Shown: positions 1,998 through 35,792 of the stretch, one piece after another | Layout of the letters: each line of letters begins with the position of its first letter | How positions within the stretch are numbered: position 1 is the first letter of the stretch | Assembly (NCBI RefSeq): GCF_014641495.1 | Contig: NZ_BMHV01000027.1 | Location: 1 to 35,792, forward strand | Length of the DNA: 35,792 bases | Direction of reading: 5' to 3' | DNA from: Terasakiella brassicae | Lineage (GTDB): Bacteria; Pseudomonadota; Alphaproteobacteria; Rhodospirillales; Terasakiellaceae | The notes under the pieces: generated by a model | The model's database searches: none | The model's input: only the letters and a program-made list of their open reading frames with translations | Told to the model about the DNA's origin: nothing | Made by a program: the position numbers and the translations under genes

Positions 1998-3347
1998 TTA
2001 ACCCGGAGCCAGCCGCTTCCAGGCGGTGAAGAAGAGGGCTTGATAAGGATAAACATCCGGGAAGCTCAATTTAATCCGGCGCACGGAACGGATCACTTTT
2101 GCGCCGATCTTGAATAATTTGAGGCGGATGGTATGGGGGGCGGCTTGGGCCAGTTCGGTTCCCTTCAGCGCTTTCAGGCGAATATGGGTGACAAGCACAT
2201 AGGCAAAACCCTCCAGCAGGAGGCGCAGATAATTGGAGCGGAACTTATGGGCACTGGCGCGATAGCCGAACAGGTCCAACTGGCAATCCTTGATCCGGTT
2301 TTCCATATCCCCGCGCGGGCAGTAGATATTTTCGTAAAGCACACGCGCGACAATATCCTTGCCCGGCCTTTGCTTGTTGGCGAACATCTCTTTGCGCTTC
2401 TTTTTAACCGCGCGGATCACGCGCGGGCTGGCCTCATCCAGCGAGGTCATGAGAAAGCGCACATGTTGGCCTTTGCCCTCTTGATCCTCGACTTTGGCAA
2501 TCACATTGTAAGGCCGACCCCACGAACCGGTCTTGGGAATATGGGCGAACAGGCCGAAGTTTTTCAGGAAAGTGCGGCCCTCTTTCACCCGTTTTTTTGA
2601 TGTTTGCGATCGGGCCTCTGTTGCCTTGCGCAGCAGATATGAATTCCGCGCCAGCCCAAAGATAAAATCGACAGAGTTGGCCTTGCACCAGCGTTTGTGG
2701 ATTTGCTTGACGATGGTCGAAATCGCCCGGCGTGCGCCACGGGCCCCATCGCAATCGCCTTGGCGCAGTTGTGCCCAGAGTAAATGTGGTCCGGCAAAAA
2801 TGTACAGGGGCAGGAACCCGCGCTGTTCGTAATAGCCATTCCATGCAGAAAATTCCTGATGGCCATGCACTTTAATATCGGTGGCATCAATATCCAGAAT
2901 GATCTCATGGGGGTGCTGTGCGTGATGATCCAGAAACAGATCACACAGCAGTTCCTGCATTTTGTAAAACCGGGGGCTGAGCTTGTGATAGCGTGTGTTG
3001 CCCGTCGAGCTACAGCATTCTACTCGCCCCAAGGTAACGGAAGACGCCAGCTTGCCGCTGTCTTCTTCAGCCATCAATCGCAGGGCCGGATCAGTACACA
3101 AGGCATCATGGTCATTCAAATCTTCGTAACCAAGGGCGAGGCCTGTCACCCGTTGGGCTAACAGATTGGACAGATTATAACGCACGTACCGTCCGTCTCG
3201 CTGATCCCAAAAACAATCGGCCAAACGTGAAAATAAATCCATCCGATGCGCCGCCTCACGCAACAAAACCACGCCTCCATCTGACGTGATCTCCCCACCG
3301 TCAAACGCCGCAACAACCTGCTTTTTACCCTGATTGGAAAACAACAT
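1998..3347 (-). CDS. IS1380-family DDE transposase
   Basis: This 449-residue protein is full length for the family. It begins with the typical N-terminal block (FDGGEITSDGG, residues 15-25), has an acidic LDIDATD motif at 151-157 followed by GHQE and a GYYEQRGFLPL block, the LRQGDCDGARGA segment near 195-206, and the C-terminal CPRGDMENRIK motif that supplies the distal acidic residue of the DDE triad. It catalyses cut-and-paste movement of the surrounding element. No frameshift or internal stop is present, so it may be active. The upstream region (3348-3483) contains an AT-rich inverted repeat TAACATA-ACTC-TATGTTA (3386-3403) that could be a promoter or operator element. No strong ribosome-binding site is visible. 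Confidence 0.92.
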   Translation of the reverse strand: MLFSNQGKKQVVAAFDGGEITSDGGVVLLREAAHRMDLFSRLADCFWDQRDGRYVRYNLSNLLAQRVTGLALGYEDLNDHDALCTDPALRLMAEEDSGKLASSVTLGRVECCSSTGNTRYHKLSPRFYKMQELLCDLFLDHHAQHPHEIILDIDATDIKVHGHQEFSAWNGYYEQRGFLPLYIFAGPHLLWAQLRQGDCDGARGARRAISTIVKQIHKRWCKANSVDFIFGLARNSYLLRKATEARSQTSKKRVKEGRTFLKNFGLFAHIPKTGSWGRPYNVIAKVEDQEGKGQHVRFLMTSLDEASPRVIRAVKKKRKEMFANKQRPGKDIVARVLYENIYCPRGDMENRIKDCQLDLFGYRASAHKFRSNYLRLLLEGFAYVLVTHIRLKALKGTELAQAAPHTIRLKLFKIGAKVIRSVRRIKLSFPDVYPYQALFFTAWKRLAPG

Positions 3348-5750: not shown

Positions 5751-5863
5751 GTATGGCCTGTGTTGATTGAAGTATCAACTATTTAGAGGCATTGTCGGAT
5801 GGATCGTCATCCGACCAAAATATTTTGCATCCACAAAAGAATAGACAAGAAACGGATCAAGTT

Positions 5864-7096
5864 ATGAGTGAGGATAAGCGAAACGACGACGGAAAAATTG
5901 TCGTCAAAAACTTATATAAGGTCTTTGGGAAAAACCCGGCCAAAGCAATGAAGCTTCTGAACCAAGGTGTTCCCAAATCAGAAATTTTTGACCGAACCGA
6001 ACAAGTCGTCGGTGTGTGTGACGCAAGTTTTTGCGTTCAGGAAGGTGAGATTTTTGTTGTCATGGGGTTATCCGGTTCGGGGAAATCCACCTTGGTACGC
6101 CTCCTCAATCGTTTGATCGAACCCACATCGGGGCAAGTTCTGTTTGATGGCAAGGACATTGCCAAAATGTCTGATAAAGAACTCATGGACCTGCGTCGTA
6201 ACGATATGAGTATGGTTTTTCAGTCTTTTGCTTTGATGCCACATCTTAATGTTATTGATAATGCGGCCTTTGGTCTGGAATTATCCGGTGTCGATCTTGA
6301 AGAACGTCACAAGCGCGCTCTGGAAGCCTTGGAGCAAGTTGGACTGGAGGCCTTTGCGCACAGCTATCCTGATGAACTGTCGGGTGGCATGCAGCAACGT
6401 GTCGGGCTGGCCCGTGCCCTTGCAAACGACCCGGCTGTTATGTTGATGGATGAAGCGTTTTCCGCCCTTGATCCTTTAATTCGCAGTGAAATGCAGGATG
6501 AACTTTTAACCCTACAAGAAAAACATAAGCGCACGATTATTTTCATTTCGCACGATCTGGATGAAGCCATGCGCATTGGGGATCGTATTGCCATTATGGA
6601 AGGCGGGCGCGTTATTCAAGTCGGTACACCGGAAGAGATCCTGAACAATCCGGCTGATGAATATGTGGAATCTTTCTTCCGTGGTGTCAATGTTTCCACT
6701 GTTCTCAGTGCCAAAGATATTGCGCGTAAAAGTCAGGTTACCGTGATCGGGCGTGCTGGTGTGGGTTTGCGTACCGCCTTGGAAGAATTGCGACAGGAAG
6801 ACCGCTCTTATGCCTACGTTCTCGGTAAAGATAGAAAGTTTGCCGGAATTGTCTCGTCCAAATCTTTAAAAGAGGCGATCAAGGTTGATCCGGCGCAAGA
6901 CCTGTCCTGTGCCTTTCTTAAAGATATCGACACCTTGCCGGCAGATACGGCCCTGTCGGAAATTATCGGCAGTGTCGCCAATGCCGAATGTGGTCTGCCC
7001 GTTGTCGATGAAAATCACAAATATATCGGTGTGGTCACAAAAACATCCTTGCTCGAAACACTGGATCAGGAAACGGAGGAAGTGGCACATGGCTGA
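5864..7096 (+). CDS. proV: Glycine betaine/proline betaine ABC transporter ATPase ProV
   Basis: This is the cytoplasmic ATP-hydrolysing subunit of the ProU-type osmoprotectant importer. The 410-residue product shows Walker [10 protein letters not shown] (68-76), Q-loop [10 protein letters not shown] (118-127), signature LSGGMQQR (172-179), Walker [12 protein letters not shown] (194-204) and the His switch [11 protein letters not shown]-terminal region from about 290 contains two CBS repeats, which in OpuA-type relatives sense ionic strength. I chose ATG 5864, which gives the normal family length and N-terminus; an in-frame TTG at 5792 would add 24 residues but has a poorly spaced ribosome site. 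The stop overlaps the proW start by 8 bp (ATGGCTGA), so translation is probably coupled. Confidence 0.95.
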
Positions 7097-8180
7097 TCAA
7101 GCAACAACAAACCCGTGGGGCGCGGCGCCTGAAGCTGCTGCACCTGCAACGCCAACTCCCCCCGCAACGGGAAATGAAGGCACGGCCTGGGGTGTTTCCG
7201 AACAATCCAGTACTGCCCCGCAGGCAGACTGGCTGGCCAATTCACATGCTGATAAGGTGGATTTCAATATCCTTGATCCTTTTTCCCATGCGGTCATCCC
7301 ACTGGATGTCTGGGTGGAAAACGGGCTGGAATGGCTCGTTACCAATTTCCGTCCGGTCTTTCAGGCCGTGCGTATCCCGATTGATGCGACACTCAGCGGG
7401 ATTGAGGCGGGCCTACAAGCGATGCCTGCGGCCCTTGTTATCGTGATCTTTGGCTTGATTGCTTGGCAAATGGCAAGTAAGCGGTTGGCTTTGGCCTCTG
7501 TCGTTTCGTTGGTGACGATCGGTTTGATCGGGGCATGGTCTGAAACAATGGTGACGTTGGCGCTTGTTTTAACGTCCGTGTTTTTCAGTATGGTGATCGG
7601 TTTGCCCATCGGCATATGGCTGTCGCGTTCGGACAAGGCGGCGACAACGGTGCGGCCCATGCTGGATGCCATGCAAACAACCCCGGCCTTTGTTTATCTG
7701 GTGCCGATTGTCATGTTATTTGGCATCGGCAACGTGCCCGGTGTCGTTGTCACCATTATCTTTGCTTTACCGCCCTTGATCCGTTTGACCAATTTGGGCA
7801 TCCGTCAGGTTCCTGATGATTTGATCGAGGCTTCACGTTCTTTTGGGGCCAGCCCGAGCCAGCTTTTGTTTAAAGTTCAGCTTCCGCTTGCCATGCCGAC
7901 CATTATGGCGGGGGTTAATCAGACGTTGATGTTGTGTCTGTCCATGGTGGTGATTGCCTCCATGATTGCGGTGGGCGGTCTGGGGCAAATGGTTTTGCGT
8001 GGGATCGGGCGACTGGATATGGGGCTTGCGACCGTTGGCGGTGTCGGCATTGTTTTGCTGGCTATTGTCTTGGATCGCATCACACAAGCAATGGGTGAAG
8101 AAAAACGCCACAAAGGCATTCGCCATTGGTACGAAACCGGGCCTGTCGGTCTGGTGCGCAGTCTGGTTGTGAAATCGTAA
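7089..8180 (+). CDS. proW: Glycine betaine ABC transporter permease ProW
   Basis: The 363-residue inner-membrane subunit begins with a Pro/Ala/Gly-rich cytoplasmic-looking stretch ([18 protein letters not shown]) and then HFxxLDPF-like and RPVFQAVR segments as in enterobacterial ProW. Several hydrophobic helices follow, and the EAA coupling loop [18 protein letters not shown] contacts the ATPase. From memory, the stretches [20 protein letters not shown] and [18 protein letters not shown] are nearly identical to E. coli ProW. The start ATG lies inside the end of proV and is preceded by GGAGGA about 8 nt upstream. The binding-protein gene follows 52 bp downstream. Confidence 0.95.
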
Positions 8181-8232
8181 AACGTCATTTTAATCACTTA
8201 ACTGTTGTTAATAATTTTTGAGGAGACAATCC

Positions 8233-9249
8233 ATGAAATTCAGTCATTTCATTCGTCACGGCGCAAAAGCGGCCGCTTTTCTCGCTGGGGCGATGATCTT
8301 GTCCGCGCCGGCTATGGCCGATCATCATATGCCGGGTAAAGGCGTTGTTGTGCAGCCCGGTCAAGACAATGTGGATGGGGAAAATTTCCAGACCATTCTC
8401 GTGATGAAAGCATTGAAAGAGCTGGGTTATGACGTCAAAGACGTCCAAAATGCCAAATATCCGGCCTTGCATATCTCTATCGCAAACGGCGATGTGACGT
8501 TTATGGCAGATCATTGGAACCCCTTACACCAAGCATTTTACGACAAAGCCGGTGGTGATGAAAAACTGTCACGCACAGGCGGCTATATCGAAGGCTGTGC
8601 CCAAGGTTATCTGATCGATAAAAAAACGGCTGAGAAGTATAATATCACCAACATTGGTCAACTGACCGACCCGAAACTTGCCAAGCTGTTTGATGCCAAT
8701 AACGATGGCAAGGCCGATCTGGCAGGTTGTGTCCCCGGTTGGGGTTGTGAACGTGTGATCGAACATCAAATGGATGCGTTTGATTTGCGCAAAACAGTCA
8801 CCCATAACCAAGGTGAATATTCTGCCATTATCGCAGAGACCATTACGCGTTATAAAGAAGGCAAGTCGATCCTGTACTATACATGGACGCCTTATTGGGT
8901 TTCCGGTGTCTTGGTCCCGGGCAAAGACGTCACATGGATCGAAGTTCCGAAATCGGCACACCCGAACGGTGTTGACACCAAGCTGCCGAATGGTAAGAAC
9001 TACGGTTTCGAAGTGAACGCACAAATGATCGTTGCAAACAAAGCGTTTGTCGAGAAAAACCCGGCAGCAGCCAAGTTGTTTGAAGTGATGTCTGTTTCTG
9101 TAAACGATGTTTCTGCGCAAAACCTGAAAATGAAGGATCAAGGCGAAGGCGGCTGGAAAGCAGCCCAACGTCATGCAGATGCGTGGATTGCAGCAAACCG
9201 CAAAATGTTTGATGGTTGGCTGGAAGCGGCCCGTGCCGCTGCTAAATAA
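8233..9249 (+). CDS. proX: Glycine betaine-binding periplasmic protein ProX
   Basis: The 338-residue precursor has a signal peptide (about residues 1-29, cleavage after AMA). The mature protein carries the ProX-type pattern: VVVQPGQDNV near the start, a WNPLHQ segment, AQGYLIDKKTAEKYNITNI, FDANNDGKADL, CVPGWGCE with two cysteines, and YYTWTPYWVSG with the aromatic residues that box the quaternary ammonium group. It delivers glycine or proline betaine to ProW/ProV. GAGGAG lies 8 nt upstream of ATG 8233; a TTG 15 bp earlier is not needed. It is the last gene of proVWX and is followed by a strong terminator. Confidence 0.95.
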   Translation: MKFSHFIRHGAKAAAFLAGAMILSAPAMADHHMPGKGVVVQPGQDNVDGENFQTILVMKALKELGYDVKDVQNAKYPALHISIANGDVTFMADHWNPLHQAFYDKAGGDEKLSRTGGYIEGCAQGYLIDKKTAEKYNITNIGQLTDPKLAKLFDANNDGKADLAGCVPGWGCERVIEHQMDAFDLRKTVTHNQGEYSAIIAETITRYKEGKSILYYTWTPYWVSGVLVPGKDVTWIEVPKSAHPNGVDTKLPNGKNYGFEVNAQMIVANKAFVEKNPAAAKLFEVMSVSVNDVSAQNLKMKDQGEGGWKAAQRHADAWIAANRKMFDGWLEAARAAAK

Positions 9250-33109: not shown

Positions 33110-33886
33110 ATGATGTTCTGTGTTGTCTCCCCTGCAAAAAAGCTGGATTTTGATACGCCGGTTTCCGGTCTATCTCATACGCAGCCCTATTTTCTGGAAG
33201 ACACAGAAGAACTATCGCAAACAACACGTAAGCTGACACGAGCTGATTTATCACAACTGATGAAAATTAGCGAGGCACTGGCCGATTTAAACTATGCCCG
33301 TTTCCAAGGGTTCTCAACGCCGTTTACACCGGATAATGCCAAACAAGCTGCATTGGCGTTTAGTGGGGATACCTACGTTGGTTTGGATGCAAAAAGCTTG
33401 AATGAAGACGATTTCAAATTTGCCCAGAACCATTTCGGGATTTTGTCCGGCTTTTATGGTTTGTTGCGCCCGCTTGATTTGATCCAGCCTTATCGTCTTG
33501 AAATGGGAACTCGTCTTTCCAACCCACGCGGCAATAATTTATACGATTTCTGGGGCAGTCAGATTTCACAACGTTTGAATGATGTTTTGAAAGATCAATC
33601 GCAAAAGGTTTTGATCAATTGTGCTTCCAACGAATATTTCAAGGCTGTGGATAAGAAGGCACTGGATGCAGAAATTATCACACCTGTCTTTAAAGAGATC
33701 AAGCAAGGCGTGGCAAAAACCATTGGCCTTATGGCAAAACGGGCACGTGGTTCAATGGCGCGCTATATCATCCAAAACCGCCTTGAAGACCCCGAAGGTA
33801 TTAAAAATTTCGATCTGGGCGGCTATGTCTATCGCGACGACCTTTCCAAAGGCAATGACTGGGTCTTTACAGCGGAACGCGATTGA
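33110..33886 (+). CDS. yaaA: Peroxide stress protein YaaA (DUF328)
   Basis: The 258-residue protein matches the YaaA family: start MMFCVVSPAKKLDFDTP, an early FAGDTYVGLDA-like segment (FSGDTYVGLDAKSL), FGILSGFYGLLRPLDLIQPY, RLEMGTRL, LINCASNEYFKAVD and the ending GYVYRDDLSKGNDWVFTAE. In E. coli YaaA limits free iron and thereby DNA damage during hydrogen peroxide stress, and it binds DNA. The family is single-domain and cytoplasmic; the length is normal. The thiaminase-like gene follows on the same strand after 71 bp. Confidence 0.94.
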   Translation: MMFCVVSPAKKLDFDTPVSGLSHTQPYFLEDTEELSQTTRKLTRADLSQLMKISEALADLNYARFQGFSTPFTPDNAKQAALAFSGDTYVGLDAKSLNEDDFKFAQNHFGILSGFYGLLRPLDLIQPYRLEMGTRLSNPRGNNLYDFWGSQISQRLNDVLKDQSQKVLINCASNEYFKAVDKKALDAEIITPVFKEIKQGVAKTIGLMAKRARGSMARYIIQNRLEDPEGIKNFDLGGYVYRDDLSKGNDWVFTAERD

Positions 33887-33957
33887 CGCCAAGACTTATT
33901 GAAAGGGAAGCTTGATTGTGTTCTGATATTTGCAACCATTATAATATGGAGGCATAT

Positions 33958-35355
33958 ATGGGACGGACGTTTCGAATTTTCTTCGCAATATTTCTTTTGG
34001 TTTTGGGGTTGGTTGCGCAGGCCCCAATTGCCCGTGCCGCAGATAGTCTGACGGTGGGGCTTTATCCGTGGGTGCCGCGCTTACAACAGTTTCAGGATGC
34101 GATTTCTACGCAATGGGCAAAGGTCCAACCCGATGTGAGCCTTCATTTTTTAACATCCGATGAATGGGACGGCGGCTATCATATGAACCCGCCGGCGAAC
34201 GCTGATGTTTATGTGATGGATGCCATGTTCCTGAACTATTTCAACAGCATTGGCTCGGTTGATCTTTTGCAAGATGACGAAGTTCTCAACAAGCAGGATT
34301 TTTTTGAGTACGCCATTGATGGTGTGAAAAATCCGTCCGGTGGGTATTTGGCAGTCCCTATGCTGGGCTGTGCCAATGTGTTGTTTTACCATCAAGATGA
34401 TAGCGCCGTTGCGAGCGCACAAACCATCAGTGCCTTAAAACAAACCTTAAAGACCTGTACCTTCACCAGCATGGTCCCGCCGGGACCACGCGGATTGATG
34501 ATTGATATGCAAGGGGCCTCGACGGCGGCGTGCCGTTATATTGAATCCGAAGCCGGTATTCAGGGGGCTTGGCCGATTAGTCTGCCGGAAACCATTGATC
34601 CCACCGCGATGGGTTTTTTGCGTACCATGATGGATATGACCAGTTTCTATAATGCGACCAAGGCCGGGGACAATACCTATAATCGGGGCACATGGTATAG
34701 TGAAGGATATGGGCGCGTCTTTGTCGGATATACCGAGACATTTTCCGCCATGTCGGCACAGACACGGGCGACGACAAAAATTAAACCTTTTCCGGCCTCC
34801 GACAATGCCGATGCCCCGACCATGTTTTATTCCGACCTGATTGCGATTAACCCGACCAGTGCCAGTCGTGGCACGCGCGATTTGGCGGTTCAACTTGCCA
34901 ATGTCATTGCGGATGCGCAAACCATTACGGCCAGTATTGGTCCCGGTGATGGCAAGGATTATCCGCAATACTTGATGCCGGTGCGTCCCAGTGTGTTTGA
35001 TACGCTGTCAAAGACCTACCCGAAATATCAGGAAATGAAGGAAATGGTGGAAAACAGCAACGCGACCCTGTTTTCACTGGATAGCAATTCACGTGATTGG
35101 TTTGATGCCATGCAGGATAAAATTCTGGCCGGGGCGCGGGCCGATTATGCGTGCGGGTGCGATATCGAAGCAATTTATCCCATCCCGGACAATGCGCGTG
35201 CCGGGGCCATTTGCCCACAAACCTGCGCATCACATGGCGGCTGGAACGGTCAGTGGACCAACCAATATCCGGCGGCCCAAAATGGCTCCGTCTGTGGGTG
35301 TAACACCTGCCCACCGTCTGTCGAGCAAGAGAAGACACCCCGAGCCAATGATTGA
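33958..35355 (+). CDS. Secreted thiaminase I homologue with C-terminal Cys-rich lectin-like domain
   Basis: Thiaminase I replaces the thiazole of thiamine with another nucleophile. The 465-residue precursor has a signal peptide (1-27, cleavage after ARA). The periplasmic-binding-protein-like body contains LTVGLYPWVPRLQQFQ (31-46), VYVMDAMFLNYF (84-95, Asp88), MLGCANVLFYH with Cys138 aligned to the catalytic Cys, YNRGTWYSEGYGRVFVGYTE with Tyr258 and Glu260 aligned to the active-site Tyr and Glu, and FYSDLIAINP with Tyr291 and Asp293. These alignments are from memory of the Paenibacillus enzyme. Residues 398-451 form an extra domain with seven cysteines (CGC, CPQTC, CGCNTC) and GGWNGQW, resembling the mannan-binding MVL-type lectin domain. 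GGAGG lies upstream of ATG 33958. No bacimethrin or thiamin genes adjoin. Confidence 0.82.
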   Translation: MGRTFRIFFAIFLLVLGLVAQAPIARAADSLTVGLYPWVPRLQQFQDAISTQWAKVQPDVSLHFLTSDEWDGGYHMNPPANADVYVMDAMFLNYFNSIGSVDLLQDDEVLNKQDFFEYAIDGVKNPSGGYLAVPMLGCANVLFYHQDDSAVASAQTISALKQTLKTCTFTSMVPPGPRGLMIDMQGASTAACRYIESEAGIQGAWPISLPETIDPTAMGFLRTMMDMTSFYNATKAGDNTYNRGTWYSEGYGRVFVGYTETFSAMSAQTRATTKIKPFPASDNADAPTMFYSDLIAINPTSASRGTRDLAVQLANVIADAQTITASIGPGDGKDYPQYLMPVRPSVFDTLSKTYPKYQEMKEMVENSNATLFSLDSNSRDWFDAMQDKILAGARADYACGCDIEAIYPIPDNARAGAICPQTCASHGGWNGQWTNQYPAAQNGSVCGCNTCPPSVEQEKTPRAND

Positions 35356-35447: not shown

Positions 35448-35497
35448 TGTCTCTTTAAAGCTTGCTATATTTTATCGAAAGCATGAATGCTGAATAT

Positions 35498-35527
35498 CCC
35501 AAGGGGCTATGGCCATAGCCCCTTGGG
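35498..35527. repeat. Perfect 30-bp palindrome
   Basis: CCCAAGGGGCTATGG is followed immediately by its exact reverse complement. There is no loop and no T-run, so it is not a standard terminator. It may be the outer part of the IS110 element or a pre-existing palindromic insertion target. Confidence 0.7.
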
Positions 35528-35682
35528 AGCGGTTCAGGCGACCGTTGCGGGATTGGGCTGGAGTTGTGAATGCCCGTCGTCATCGGGGTCCCTGAGGCCG
35601 TTTTCCTTAAAACGCTTGAAGAGTTGTAGGGGCTTATACGCCCGAAGACAATCCAAAGCACAGGAAACGAAGGTCGTTTATC
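35528..35682 (+). ncRNA. Candidate IS110 non-coding end (bridge RNA region)
   Basis: The 155 bp between the palindrome and the IS110 transposase contain three small hairpins: CGGT/ACCG (35530-35544), CGTTTT/AAAACG (35599-35614) and GGGC/GCCC (35630-35643). In IS110-group elements the segment upstream of the recombinase encodes the bridge RNA, which pairs with target and donor DNA. The RNA itself cannot be delimited here; assignment rests on position and folding potential. Confidence 0.35.
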
Positions 35683-35792
35683 ATGACCCATTCTTCCGAT
35701 AAATCTCTTGTTATTCTTGGCTGCGATATTGCCAAAGAAACCATTGTTATCTGTAACCGAAGCACAGGCGAGTTCAAAACCATCGCCAATCG
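35683..35792 (+). CDS. IS110-family transposase, N-terminal fragment at window edge
   Basis: The frame begins MTHSSDKSLVILGCDIAKET and continues open to the window end (36 full codons). LGCDIAKETIVI matches the start of the DEDD (RuvC-like) domain of IS110-family recombinases, with the first catalytic Asp. AGGAAACGAAGG lies upstream of the ATG. The rest lies outside the window, so intactness is unknown. Confidence 0.7.
   Translation, partial: MTHSSDKSLVILGCDIAKETIVICNRSTGEFKTIAN

What the first reader, a model, noticed from the sequence alone, without database searches (positions are those of the whole stretch)
33958..35355. Thiaminase I homologue fused to a cysteine-rich, MVL-like domain
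The sequence shows a signal peptide, a thiaminase I-like body with Cys138, Tyr258/Glu260 and Tyr291/Asp293 in the expected contexts, and a C-terminal domain of about 55 residues with seven cysteines and GGWNGQW. Thiaminase I is known from only a few lineages (Paenibacillus, Clostridium, Naegleria and some others), and I know of no described fusion to a glycan-binding domain. No bacimethrin or thiamin biosynthesis genes adjoin, so a role in thiamin-precursor salvage, in attacking neighbours' thiamin, or in surface attachment via the tail is open. The fusion and the active-site conservation are visible; the role is inference.
Basis: partly seen in the sequence, partly recalled or inferred. Interest (0 to 1): 0.75.

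Follow-up and report, generated by a model that had tools for sequence, protein, structure and literature searches.

The report
Thiaminase with a lectin-like tail
This bacterial gene encodes what looks like an exported vitamin-B1-destroying enzyme, with its known active-site residues intact, joined to a small cysteine-rich tail of a sugar-binding-protein family, which suggests (but does not prove) that the enzyme is held on a surface where it removes thiamin.

Summary
The finding holds. Window 33958-35355 (+) encodes 465 residues: a signal peptide (by eye), a full thiaminase I body (TIGR04541 351 bits, cut-off 175; PDB 4kys E 5.9e-58, 2thi E 9.7e-56) and a C-terminal MVL domain (PF12151 36.9 bits, cut-off 25). 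Nine of ten site positions mapped from 2thi are identical, Cys113->138 and Glu241->260 included; the tenth is Tyr->Trp. All 7 distinct genomes over the thiaminase cut-off that I reached carry the fusion (six Alphaproteobacteria, one Burkholderia); three of the other six came from a scan partly keyed on the tail. The tail is better conserved (60% mean pairwise) than body (44%) or linker (25%). A tail model ranks MVL 1zhq first of 350,542 chains, but at E 0.022. None of 7 tails keeps the Trp of MVL's GPxW loop, so MVL's sugar cannot be assumed. The gene stands alone after yaaA, is absent from 5 of 5 congeners, and its host has thiC beside a TPP riboswitch, which argues against salvage. Best reading: an exported thiaminase I tethered to a surface. 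Enzyme identity is near certain; tether and ecological role are inferred.

The parts
33948..33952 (+). GGAGG ribosome-binding site, 5 nt before the ATG
   Evidence: sequence
33958..35355 (+). gene for thiaminase I with signal peptide and C-terminal MVL-type tail (465 aa)
33958..34041 (+). signal peptide, residues 1-28 (ARA|ADS); no lipobox Cys (first Cys of the protein is 138)
   Evidence: read; not run through a predictor
34042..35109 (+). thiaminase I body, residues 29-384
   Evidence: TIGR04541 351 bits; PDB 4kys, 2thi
34369..34371 (+). Cys138, equivalent of nucleophile Cys113 of 2thi (role recalled)
   Evidence: Cys in 6 of 6 sequences that cover it, window included
34735..34737 (+). Glu260, equivalent of general base Glu241 of 2thi (role recalled)
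   Evidence: Glu in 7 of 7, window included
34828..34836 (+). Tyr291-x-Asp293, equivalents of Tyr270 and Asp272
   Evidence: in 7 of 7, window included
35110..35151 (+). linker, residues 385-398, poorly conserved
   Evidence: 25% mean pairwise identity
35152..35310 (+). cysteine-rich MVL-type tail, residues 399-451, seven Cys
35194..35301 (+). PF12151 (MVL) match, residues 413-448
33110..33886 (+). yaaA, the conserved upstream neighbour that marks the insertion point
   Evidence: PF03883; found in 6 of 6 genomes of the genus, with the NTF2-like gene beside it in the 5 others

Best explanation
It is a thiaminase I with a complete set of known catalytic residues, exported through Sec, that carries a small cysteine-rich (probably disulfide-bonded) MVL-family domain at its C terminus. 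The body should split thiamin by Cys138 attack and Glu260 base catalysis and pass the pyrimidine to an outside nucleophile (identity shown by homology; activity not assayed; chemistry recalled). The tail most likely holds the enzyme on a carbohydrate-bearing surface (matrix, own envelope or another cell), so that thiamin is destroyed locally, outside the cytoplasm of a host that can make the thiamin pyrimidine itself, to the cost of thiamin-needing neighbours. Shown: composition, active-site residues, constraint on the tail, recurrence, lone-gene context. Inferred: export, sugar binding, target surface, competitive role.
For: TIGR04541 and PDB matches; catalytic residues; PF12151 match, 1zhq the only PDB hit of the tail by sequence, E 8.7e-4, and first by fold, probability 0.97. 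Fusion in 7 of 7 distinct over-cut-off genomes reached; of these, 3 of 3 newly found by the body-only search of the class have it. Tail 60% mean pairwise identity, its core 76%, against body 44%, linker 25% and C-end 21% (15 pairs of 6 full-length sequences), so the tail seems to be under selection of its own. The same domain sits at the C-terminal end of unrelated bodies: CN-hydrolase (L031), VHL-beta (L040), a large unnamed protein (L009). Host has thiC (PF01964, 596 bits) beside a TPP riboswitch. Precedent: membrane- and vesicle-held (lipoprotein) thiaminase I of myxobacteria starves Phytophthora of thiamin (PMC10499793, passages).
Against: No binding or activity data. 0 of 7 thiaminase tails keep the Trp of the GPxW loop that both MVL repeats and L031, L036 and L040 have. 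One tail unit, where MVL has two per chain and is a dimer (PMC3407925). Tail scores are modest, and 2 of 7 (L020 19.4 bits, L026 17.8) fall under the PF12151 cut-off in single-protein scans. Foldseek E for 1zhq is 0.022, TM 0.47/0.30. A Sec signal gives the periplasm; how the protein would cross the outer membrane was not studied.
Confidence: 0.5

Rival explanations
1. The tail is not a sugar binder but a secretion, sorting or stability module: a compact cysteine-rich C-terminal knob that several unrelated exported proteins share.
For: Same domain at the C-terminal end of unrelated, signal-peptide-bearing (by eye) bodies; loss of the GPxW Trp in the thiaminase tails; seven cysteines and high conservation fit a structural role.
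Against: Family and fold point to MVL; the best conserved stretch includes non-cysteine residues, GGW-G-WTN in 7 of 7; patchy distribution, unlike a general sorting signal (9 of 337 genomes of the class); in L035 and L041 the domain lies near the N terminus.
Confidence: 0.3
2. A salvage enzyme: it splits thiamin or thiamin analogues outside the cell so that pyrimidine and thiazole can be taken up and rebuilt.
For: Salvage was proposed for Paenibacillus, where the gene lies in an operon with thiM, thiD and thiE (PMC5627462, passages).
Against: No thi genes among 30 window frames scanned and no riboswitch in the window; none recognised beside relatives (read by eye; three neighbours scanned); host has thiC beside a TPP riboswitch; salvage does not explain the tail. 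The rest of the host's thiamin pathway was not examined.
Confidence: 0.13
3. A former thiaminase now used as a periplasmic solute-binding protein.
For: Thiaminase I shares the solute-binding-protein fold (recalled); L019 also has a sub-threshold PF01547 match (23.2 bits vs 26).
Against: Catalytic Cys, Glu and Asp kept in every relative that covers them; equivalog score twice the cut-off; the only ABC transporter genes recognised in the window are an OpuAC-type set at 5792-9249, about 25 kb away.
Confidence: 0.04

Closest known systems
Thiaminase I of Paenibacillus thiaminolyticus / Clostridium (PDB 2thi, 4kys; TIGR04541, BcmE)
   Same: Whole body aligns (E 9.7e-56 and 5.9e-58); catalytic residues match.
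   Different: No MVL tail (matches end 18 and 11 residues before the chain ends); the Paenibacillus gene lies in a bacimethrin/thiamin operon (PMC5627462, passages), this one does not. Species of the PDB chains are recalled.
Myxobacterial thiaminase I CcThi1/MxThi1 (PMC10499793, passages)
   Same: Thiaminase I of a Gram-negative, exported and held on a surface, acting on neighbours.
   Different: Held by a lipoprotein signal peptide on membrane and vesicles; ours has no lipobox and has a C-terminal tail instead. The sequence of CcThi1 was not compared here.
MVL, mannan-binding lectin of Microcystis viridis (PDB 1zhq, PF12151)
   Same: Sequence (E 8.7e-4) and predicted fold (rank 1) of one repeat; GQWT motif as in the first repeat.
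   Different: MVL has two repeats and dimerises (PMC3407925) and has Trp in the PLW loop of both; ours has one unit with seven Cys and no loop Trp.
C-N hydrolase with MVL tail (L031, same order as the window's genome)
   Same: Enzyme with a Cys-bearing MVL domain at the C terminus.
   Different: Different enzyme; keeps the GPxW Trp.

Membership tests
Thiaminase I (TIGR04541, thiamine pyridinylase) | Full-length equivalog match over the curated cut-off | tested here: met
   351.1 bits vs 175, positions 10-380 of 381
Thiaminase I (TIGR04541, thiamine pyridinylase) | Catalytic Cys113 and Glu241 and the surrounding Asp/Tyr set | tested here: met
   C138, E260, D88, Y36, Y74, Y241, Y258, Y291, D293 identical; Y18 -> W38. 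The list of site residues is recalled.
Thiaminase I (TIGR04541, thiamine pyridinylase) | Catalytic residues in one pocket of a model | tested here: inconclusive
   AlphaFold2 model from 5 sequences has mean pLDDT 41.4
Thiaminase I (TIGR04541, thiamine pyridinylase) | Cleaves thiamin with an outside nucleophile | not testable with these tools
   needs an enzyme assay
MVL / mannan-binding (PF12151) | Pfam match over gathering score | tested here: met
   36.9 bits vs 25; 5 of the 7 fusions, window included, pass in single-protein scans
MVL / mannan-binding (PF12151) | Fold of one 1zhq repeat | tested here: inconclusive
   tail model pLDDT 73.6, strand-helix-strand-strand; 1zhq rank 1, probability 0.97, but E 0.022, rmsd 3.7, TM 0.47/0.30: supportive, not conclusive
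MVL / mannan-binding (PF12151) | Trp in the (G)PxW loop of both MVL repeats | tested here: not met
   0 of 7 thiaminase tails have it. Whether this Trp touches sugar was not established here, so this lowers 'binds what MVL binds', not Pfam membership.
MVL / mannan-binding (PF12151) | Binds oligomannose N-glycan core | not testable with these tools
   needs glycan array or calorimetry
Bacimethrin-operon thiaminase (BcmE in context) | Neighbouring bacimethrin or thiamin genes | tested here: not met
   none among 30 window frames scanned with Pfam, 24 of which matched a family; the contig ends 437 bases downstream

The most novel reading that the evidence does not exclude
A surface-guided vitamin destroyer: the tail recognises glycans on a particular class of neighbour (for instance N-glycan-bearing algae, fungi, oomycetes or protists, since MVL reads the Man-Man-GlcNAc-GlcNAc core of oligomannosides) and places thiaminase on thiamin-requiring cells, a form of antagonism by local vitamin depletion that spreads between bacterial lineages as a single gene.
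Probability: 0.17. Interest if true: 0.78.

Novelty: new variant of a known kind. Interest (0 to 1): 0.47.

Why it matters
What exported thiaminase I is for is still open (salvage, antibiotic partner, attack); the Paenibacillus paper calls the enzyme enigmatic (PMC5627462, abstract seen). A natural, conserved fusion to a lectin-family domain, in a host that has thiC and with no thiamin genes beside it, makes the 'hold it on a surface and starve the neighbours' idea directly testable: find what the tail binds. It would also be a second way to anchor thiaminase, beside the lipid anchor of myxobacteria.

Tried and rejected
Solute-binding protein rather than enzyme: rejected on scores and catalytic residues. 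Fusion as assembly or frame artefact: rejected, six other genomes have it. Phage origin: no relative in viral contigs and no PHROG match. Plasmid carriage: 3 of 72,556 plasmid records match, none over the tail (query ends at 389, 389 and 346). RNA element: no Rfam match in the window at gathering scores. Tree of 11 rows (tail columns not removed): two small groups of thiaminases supported (window+L004, L019+L020), long branches meet, so it does not say how often the tail was gained. Full-length model: useless. Residues of MVL that touch sugar: the 2009 MVL paper is not held and the 2005 structure paper was seen only as a reference, so no contact-level test was made. Of 105 papers that hold 'thiaminase I', 40 were listed and passages of two were read.

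Ascertainment: L004, L006 and L007 came from a scan with six patterns, five from the body and one from the tail, so their having a tail may be partly selected for. G344, G423 and G194 came from the body-only family search: 3 of 3 have the tail. The diverged homologue L030 (128 bits, under the cut-off) has none, nor has the Rhodococcus fascians plasmid enzyme.

Full report
What is there. Window 33958-35355 on the + strand is an open frame of 465 residues with a good ribosome-binding site (GGAGG at 33948-33952). The mechanical ORF starts upstream at a TTG (33916), but the ATG at 33958 has the binding site. Residues 1-28 read as a Sec signal peptide with an AxA-type end (ARA|ADS). There is no cysteine before residue 138, so no lipoprotein signal. 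This was read by eye.

Body. NCBIfam TIGR04541 (thiaminase_BcmE, equivalog) scores 351.1 bits against a cut-off of 175, over positions 10-380 of 381. Pfam PF22141 gives E 6.9e-37. The nearest solved chains are 4kys (E 5.9e-58) and 2thi (E 9.7e-56), over nearly the whole chain. Counting through the printed alignment by script, 2thi Y16, Y50, D64, C113, Y222, Y239, E241, Y270 and D272 are identical at Y36, Y74, D88, C138, Y241, Y258, E260, Y291 and D293; Y18 is W38. The choice of these positions as the active site is recalled from the crystal-structure literature. In the six relatives all are kept where covered, except that position 258 is Y or F and position 38 W or Y. The two proteins of the order that the same model picks up elsewhere score only 20.2 and 22.9 bits; one, L002, is an ordinary solute-binding protein (PF01547 172.8 bits), the other was judged alike by eye. 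L019, a true relative, also shows a sub-threshold PF01547 match (23.2 vs 26), as expected if the folds are related.

Tail. PF12151 (MVL) matches residues 413-448 with 36.9 bits, cut-off 25. Against the PDB by sequence the tail finds only the Microcystis lectin 1zhq, E 8.7e-4 for the whole sequence, with both repeats aligned. The tail has seven cysteines. A model of the 66-residue tail from 14 sequences (5 thiaminase tails, 9 from an unnamed protein family) has mean pLDDT 73.6 and a strand-helix-strand-strand order. Foldseek ranks 1zhq first of 350,542 chains with probability 0.97, but E is 0.022, no hit reaches E 0.001 and TM-scores are 0.47/0.30. So the tail is an MVL-type unit by sequence, with moderate structural support. 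The model of the whole protein was unusable (mean pLDDT 41.4).

Relatives. A scan of genome contigs gave 14 loci: four encode the thiaminase body with tail (L004 57% identical, L006 Roseibium, L005, and L007 Burkholderia multivorans, where the contig end cuts the gene). Nine others (L009-L017) are a large unnamed protein that shares the tail alone, and L008 is a 27-residue tail fragment at a contig edge. Body-only searches with TIGR04541 found over-cut-off matches in 1 of 100 relatives (the window's own), 4 of 385 genomes of the class (own included), 1 of 398 of the phylum (own), 1 of 300 of the order of L007's genome (its own), 2 of 17 of the family of G344 (a third genome is under the cut-off) and 1 of 219 of the order of L006's genome (its own); in the order of G194 only that genome is held. 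The draws overlap, and phyla beyond this one were not surveyed. L005 and L019 give the same protein on a contig of the same length and are counted once. That makes seven distinct over-cut-off genomes, and 7 of 7 have the tail. 5 of 7 pass the PF12151 cut-off in single-protein scans; L020 (19.4 bits) and L026 (17.8) do not, though L020 reaches 25.1 in the genome search and both align through the tail, L026 with one Cys fewer. Without the tail: the PDB enzymes, the Rhodococcus fascians plasmid enzyme and the diverged L030.

Constraint. In six full-length sequences (15 pairs; the partial L029 left out) mean pairwise identity is 44% in the body, 25% in the linker, 60% in the tail, 76% in the tail core (residues 426-451), 21% in the last 14 residues and 28% in the signal peptide. 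A tail that changes more slowly than the enzyme, between a fast linker and a fast end, is probably under selection for its own function. Conservation of cysteines counts in this, so it does not by itself show binding.

What the tail can and cannot tell. The same domain sits at the C-terminal end of a CN-hydrolase (L031), a VHL-beta protein (L040) and the large unnamed protein (L009), while in L035 and L041 it lies near the N terminus. In the class, 9 of 337 genomes have it, at 11 places, three of them the thiaminases of the window, G344 and G423. MVL reads the Man-Man-GlcNAc-GlcNAc core of oligomannosides with one cleft per repeat (PMC3407925, passages). Both MVL repeats and L031, L036 and L040 have a Trp in the (G)PxW loop; none of 7 thiaminase tails has it. 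I could not read the papers that list the sugar contacts, so I do not know if that Trp is one. This argues against assuming MVL's specificity; it does not argue against some sugar.

Context. Pfam on 30 window frames besides the thiaminase (24 matched a family, 6 did not; short overlapping frames were not scanned) finds no thiamin or bacimethrin gene. The nearest neighbours are PEP-utilising enzyme I-like, rapZ, histidine kinase and response regulator, CREG-like, PEP carboxykinase, NTF2-like and yaaA; a glycine-betaine-type ABC transporter (OpuAC) lies about 25 kb away. Rfam finds no riboswitch in the window. Beside relatives the neighbours differ: a CN-hydrolase gene at L004, an aconitase-family (leuC-like) gene at L005, a methionyl-tRNA synthetase gene at L006; none recognised by eye is a thi gene, but in these G+C-rich loci my frame picker often took the wrong strand, so this is a weak negative. 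The genome has one TPP riboswitch match; just downstream on the same strand is thiC (PF01964, 596 bits), so the host can probably make the pyrimidine; other thiamin genes were not sought. yaaA is in 6 of 6 genomes of the genus; in the five others the NTF2-like gene adjoins it in 5 and pckA is near in 4, but the thiaminase is in none. After yaaA the five have a glutathione-transferase gene (3; one scanned), an S-adenosylhomocysteinase gene (1; scanned) or a transposase-like helix-turn-helix gene (1; scanned). The gene is richer in G+C (52.0%, third positions 56%) than seven neighbours (44.9-50.2%; 43.4-53.2%). Together this looks like a lone gene gained at a variable site. The contig ends 437 bases after the gene.

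How it most likely works. Exported enzyme with a disulfide-bonded tail; thiamin is split by Cys138/Glu260 chemistry outside the cytoplasm, so the host's own cofactor is safe; the tail keeps the enzyme on a surface. Myxobacteria provide the precedent: a lipoprotein thiaminase I on membrane and vesicles starves Phytophthora of thiamin, and a double change at Cys148 and Glu269 was made there (PMC10499793, passages). The words 'domain' and 'lectin' do not occur in the main text of that paper. The Paenibacillus enzyme lies in a thiamin/bacimethrin operon and salvage was proposed for it (PMC5627462, passages); nothing of that context is here.

Print check. 'thiaminase' with 'mannan-binding lectin': 0 papers; with 'lectin domain': 2, which by title and start of abstract are unrelated; 'PF12151' anywhere: 1, on cyanobacterial lectins, without the word thiaminase; 'thiaminase I' with 'fusion protein', 'C-terminal domain' and 'carbohydrate-binding': 0. 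The library holds open-licence papers only, so a description elsewhere, or a listing in InterPro, is possible.

Verdict. A real, recurrent, conserved domain architecture of a known enzyme that I found undescribed; not a new kind of system. Interest is moderate: the enzyme is ordinary for its family, the fusion is a good handle on an old question, and the most exciting reading (glycan-guided vitamin depletion) is open but unproven.

Noticed in passing
L031:1480-2628 (-): Carbon-nitrogen hydrolase (PF00795, 77.5 bits) with a strong MVL tail (56.8 bits) in a genome of the same order: a second enzyme given the same kind of tail.
   Followed up: partly
L036:1132-1623 (+), L040:1126-1620 (+): Small proteins with an MVL tail; L040 has a VHL-beta domain (39.9 bits) and L036 looks alike by eye.
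   Followed up: partly
L009-L017: Large unnamed protein (about 480-560 aa) of Shewanella, Cellvibrio, Crenothrix and others with a CFGCHN/G motif and a C-terminal MVL unit; L009 has no Pfam body match over cut-off.
   Followed up: partly
window 35497-35528: Perfect 16-bp inverted repeat without spacer, about 140 bases after the thiaminase gene; possibly a terminator or mobile-element feature.
   Followed up: no
window 35683-35792: Start of an open frame cut by the contig end whose first residues resemble an IS110-type transposase by eye; Pfam gave no match for 36 residues.
   Followed up: partly
window 1998-3347 (-): DDE transposase (PF13701, 379 bits) near the other end of the contig.
   Followed up: no
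L030:1420-2760 (-): Diverged thiaminase-like protein (128 bits, under cut-off) without tail that keeps the Cys and Glu contexts but not the Tyr-x-Asp motif.
   Followed up: partly
L048:5959-7227 (+): Rhodococcus fascians plasmid pFiD188 carries a tailless thiaminase I with no bacimethrin or thiamin genes annotated within about 6 kb (that gene table is incomplete).
   Followed up: partly
L008:3-86 (+): Tail fragment of 27 residues with HGGWNGQWTNQ at a contig edge in a Xanthobacteraceae bin: probably another fusion, body not visible.
   Followed up: no
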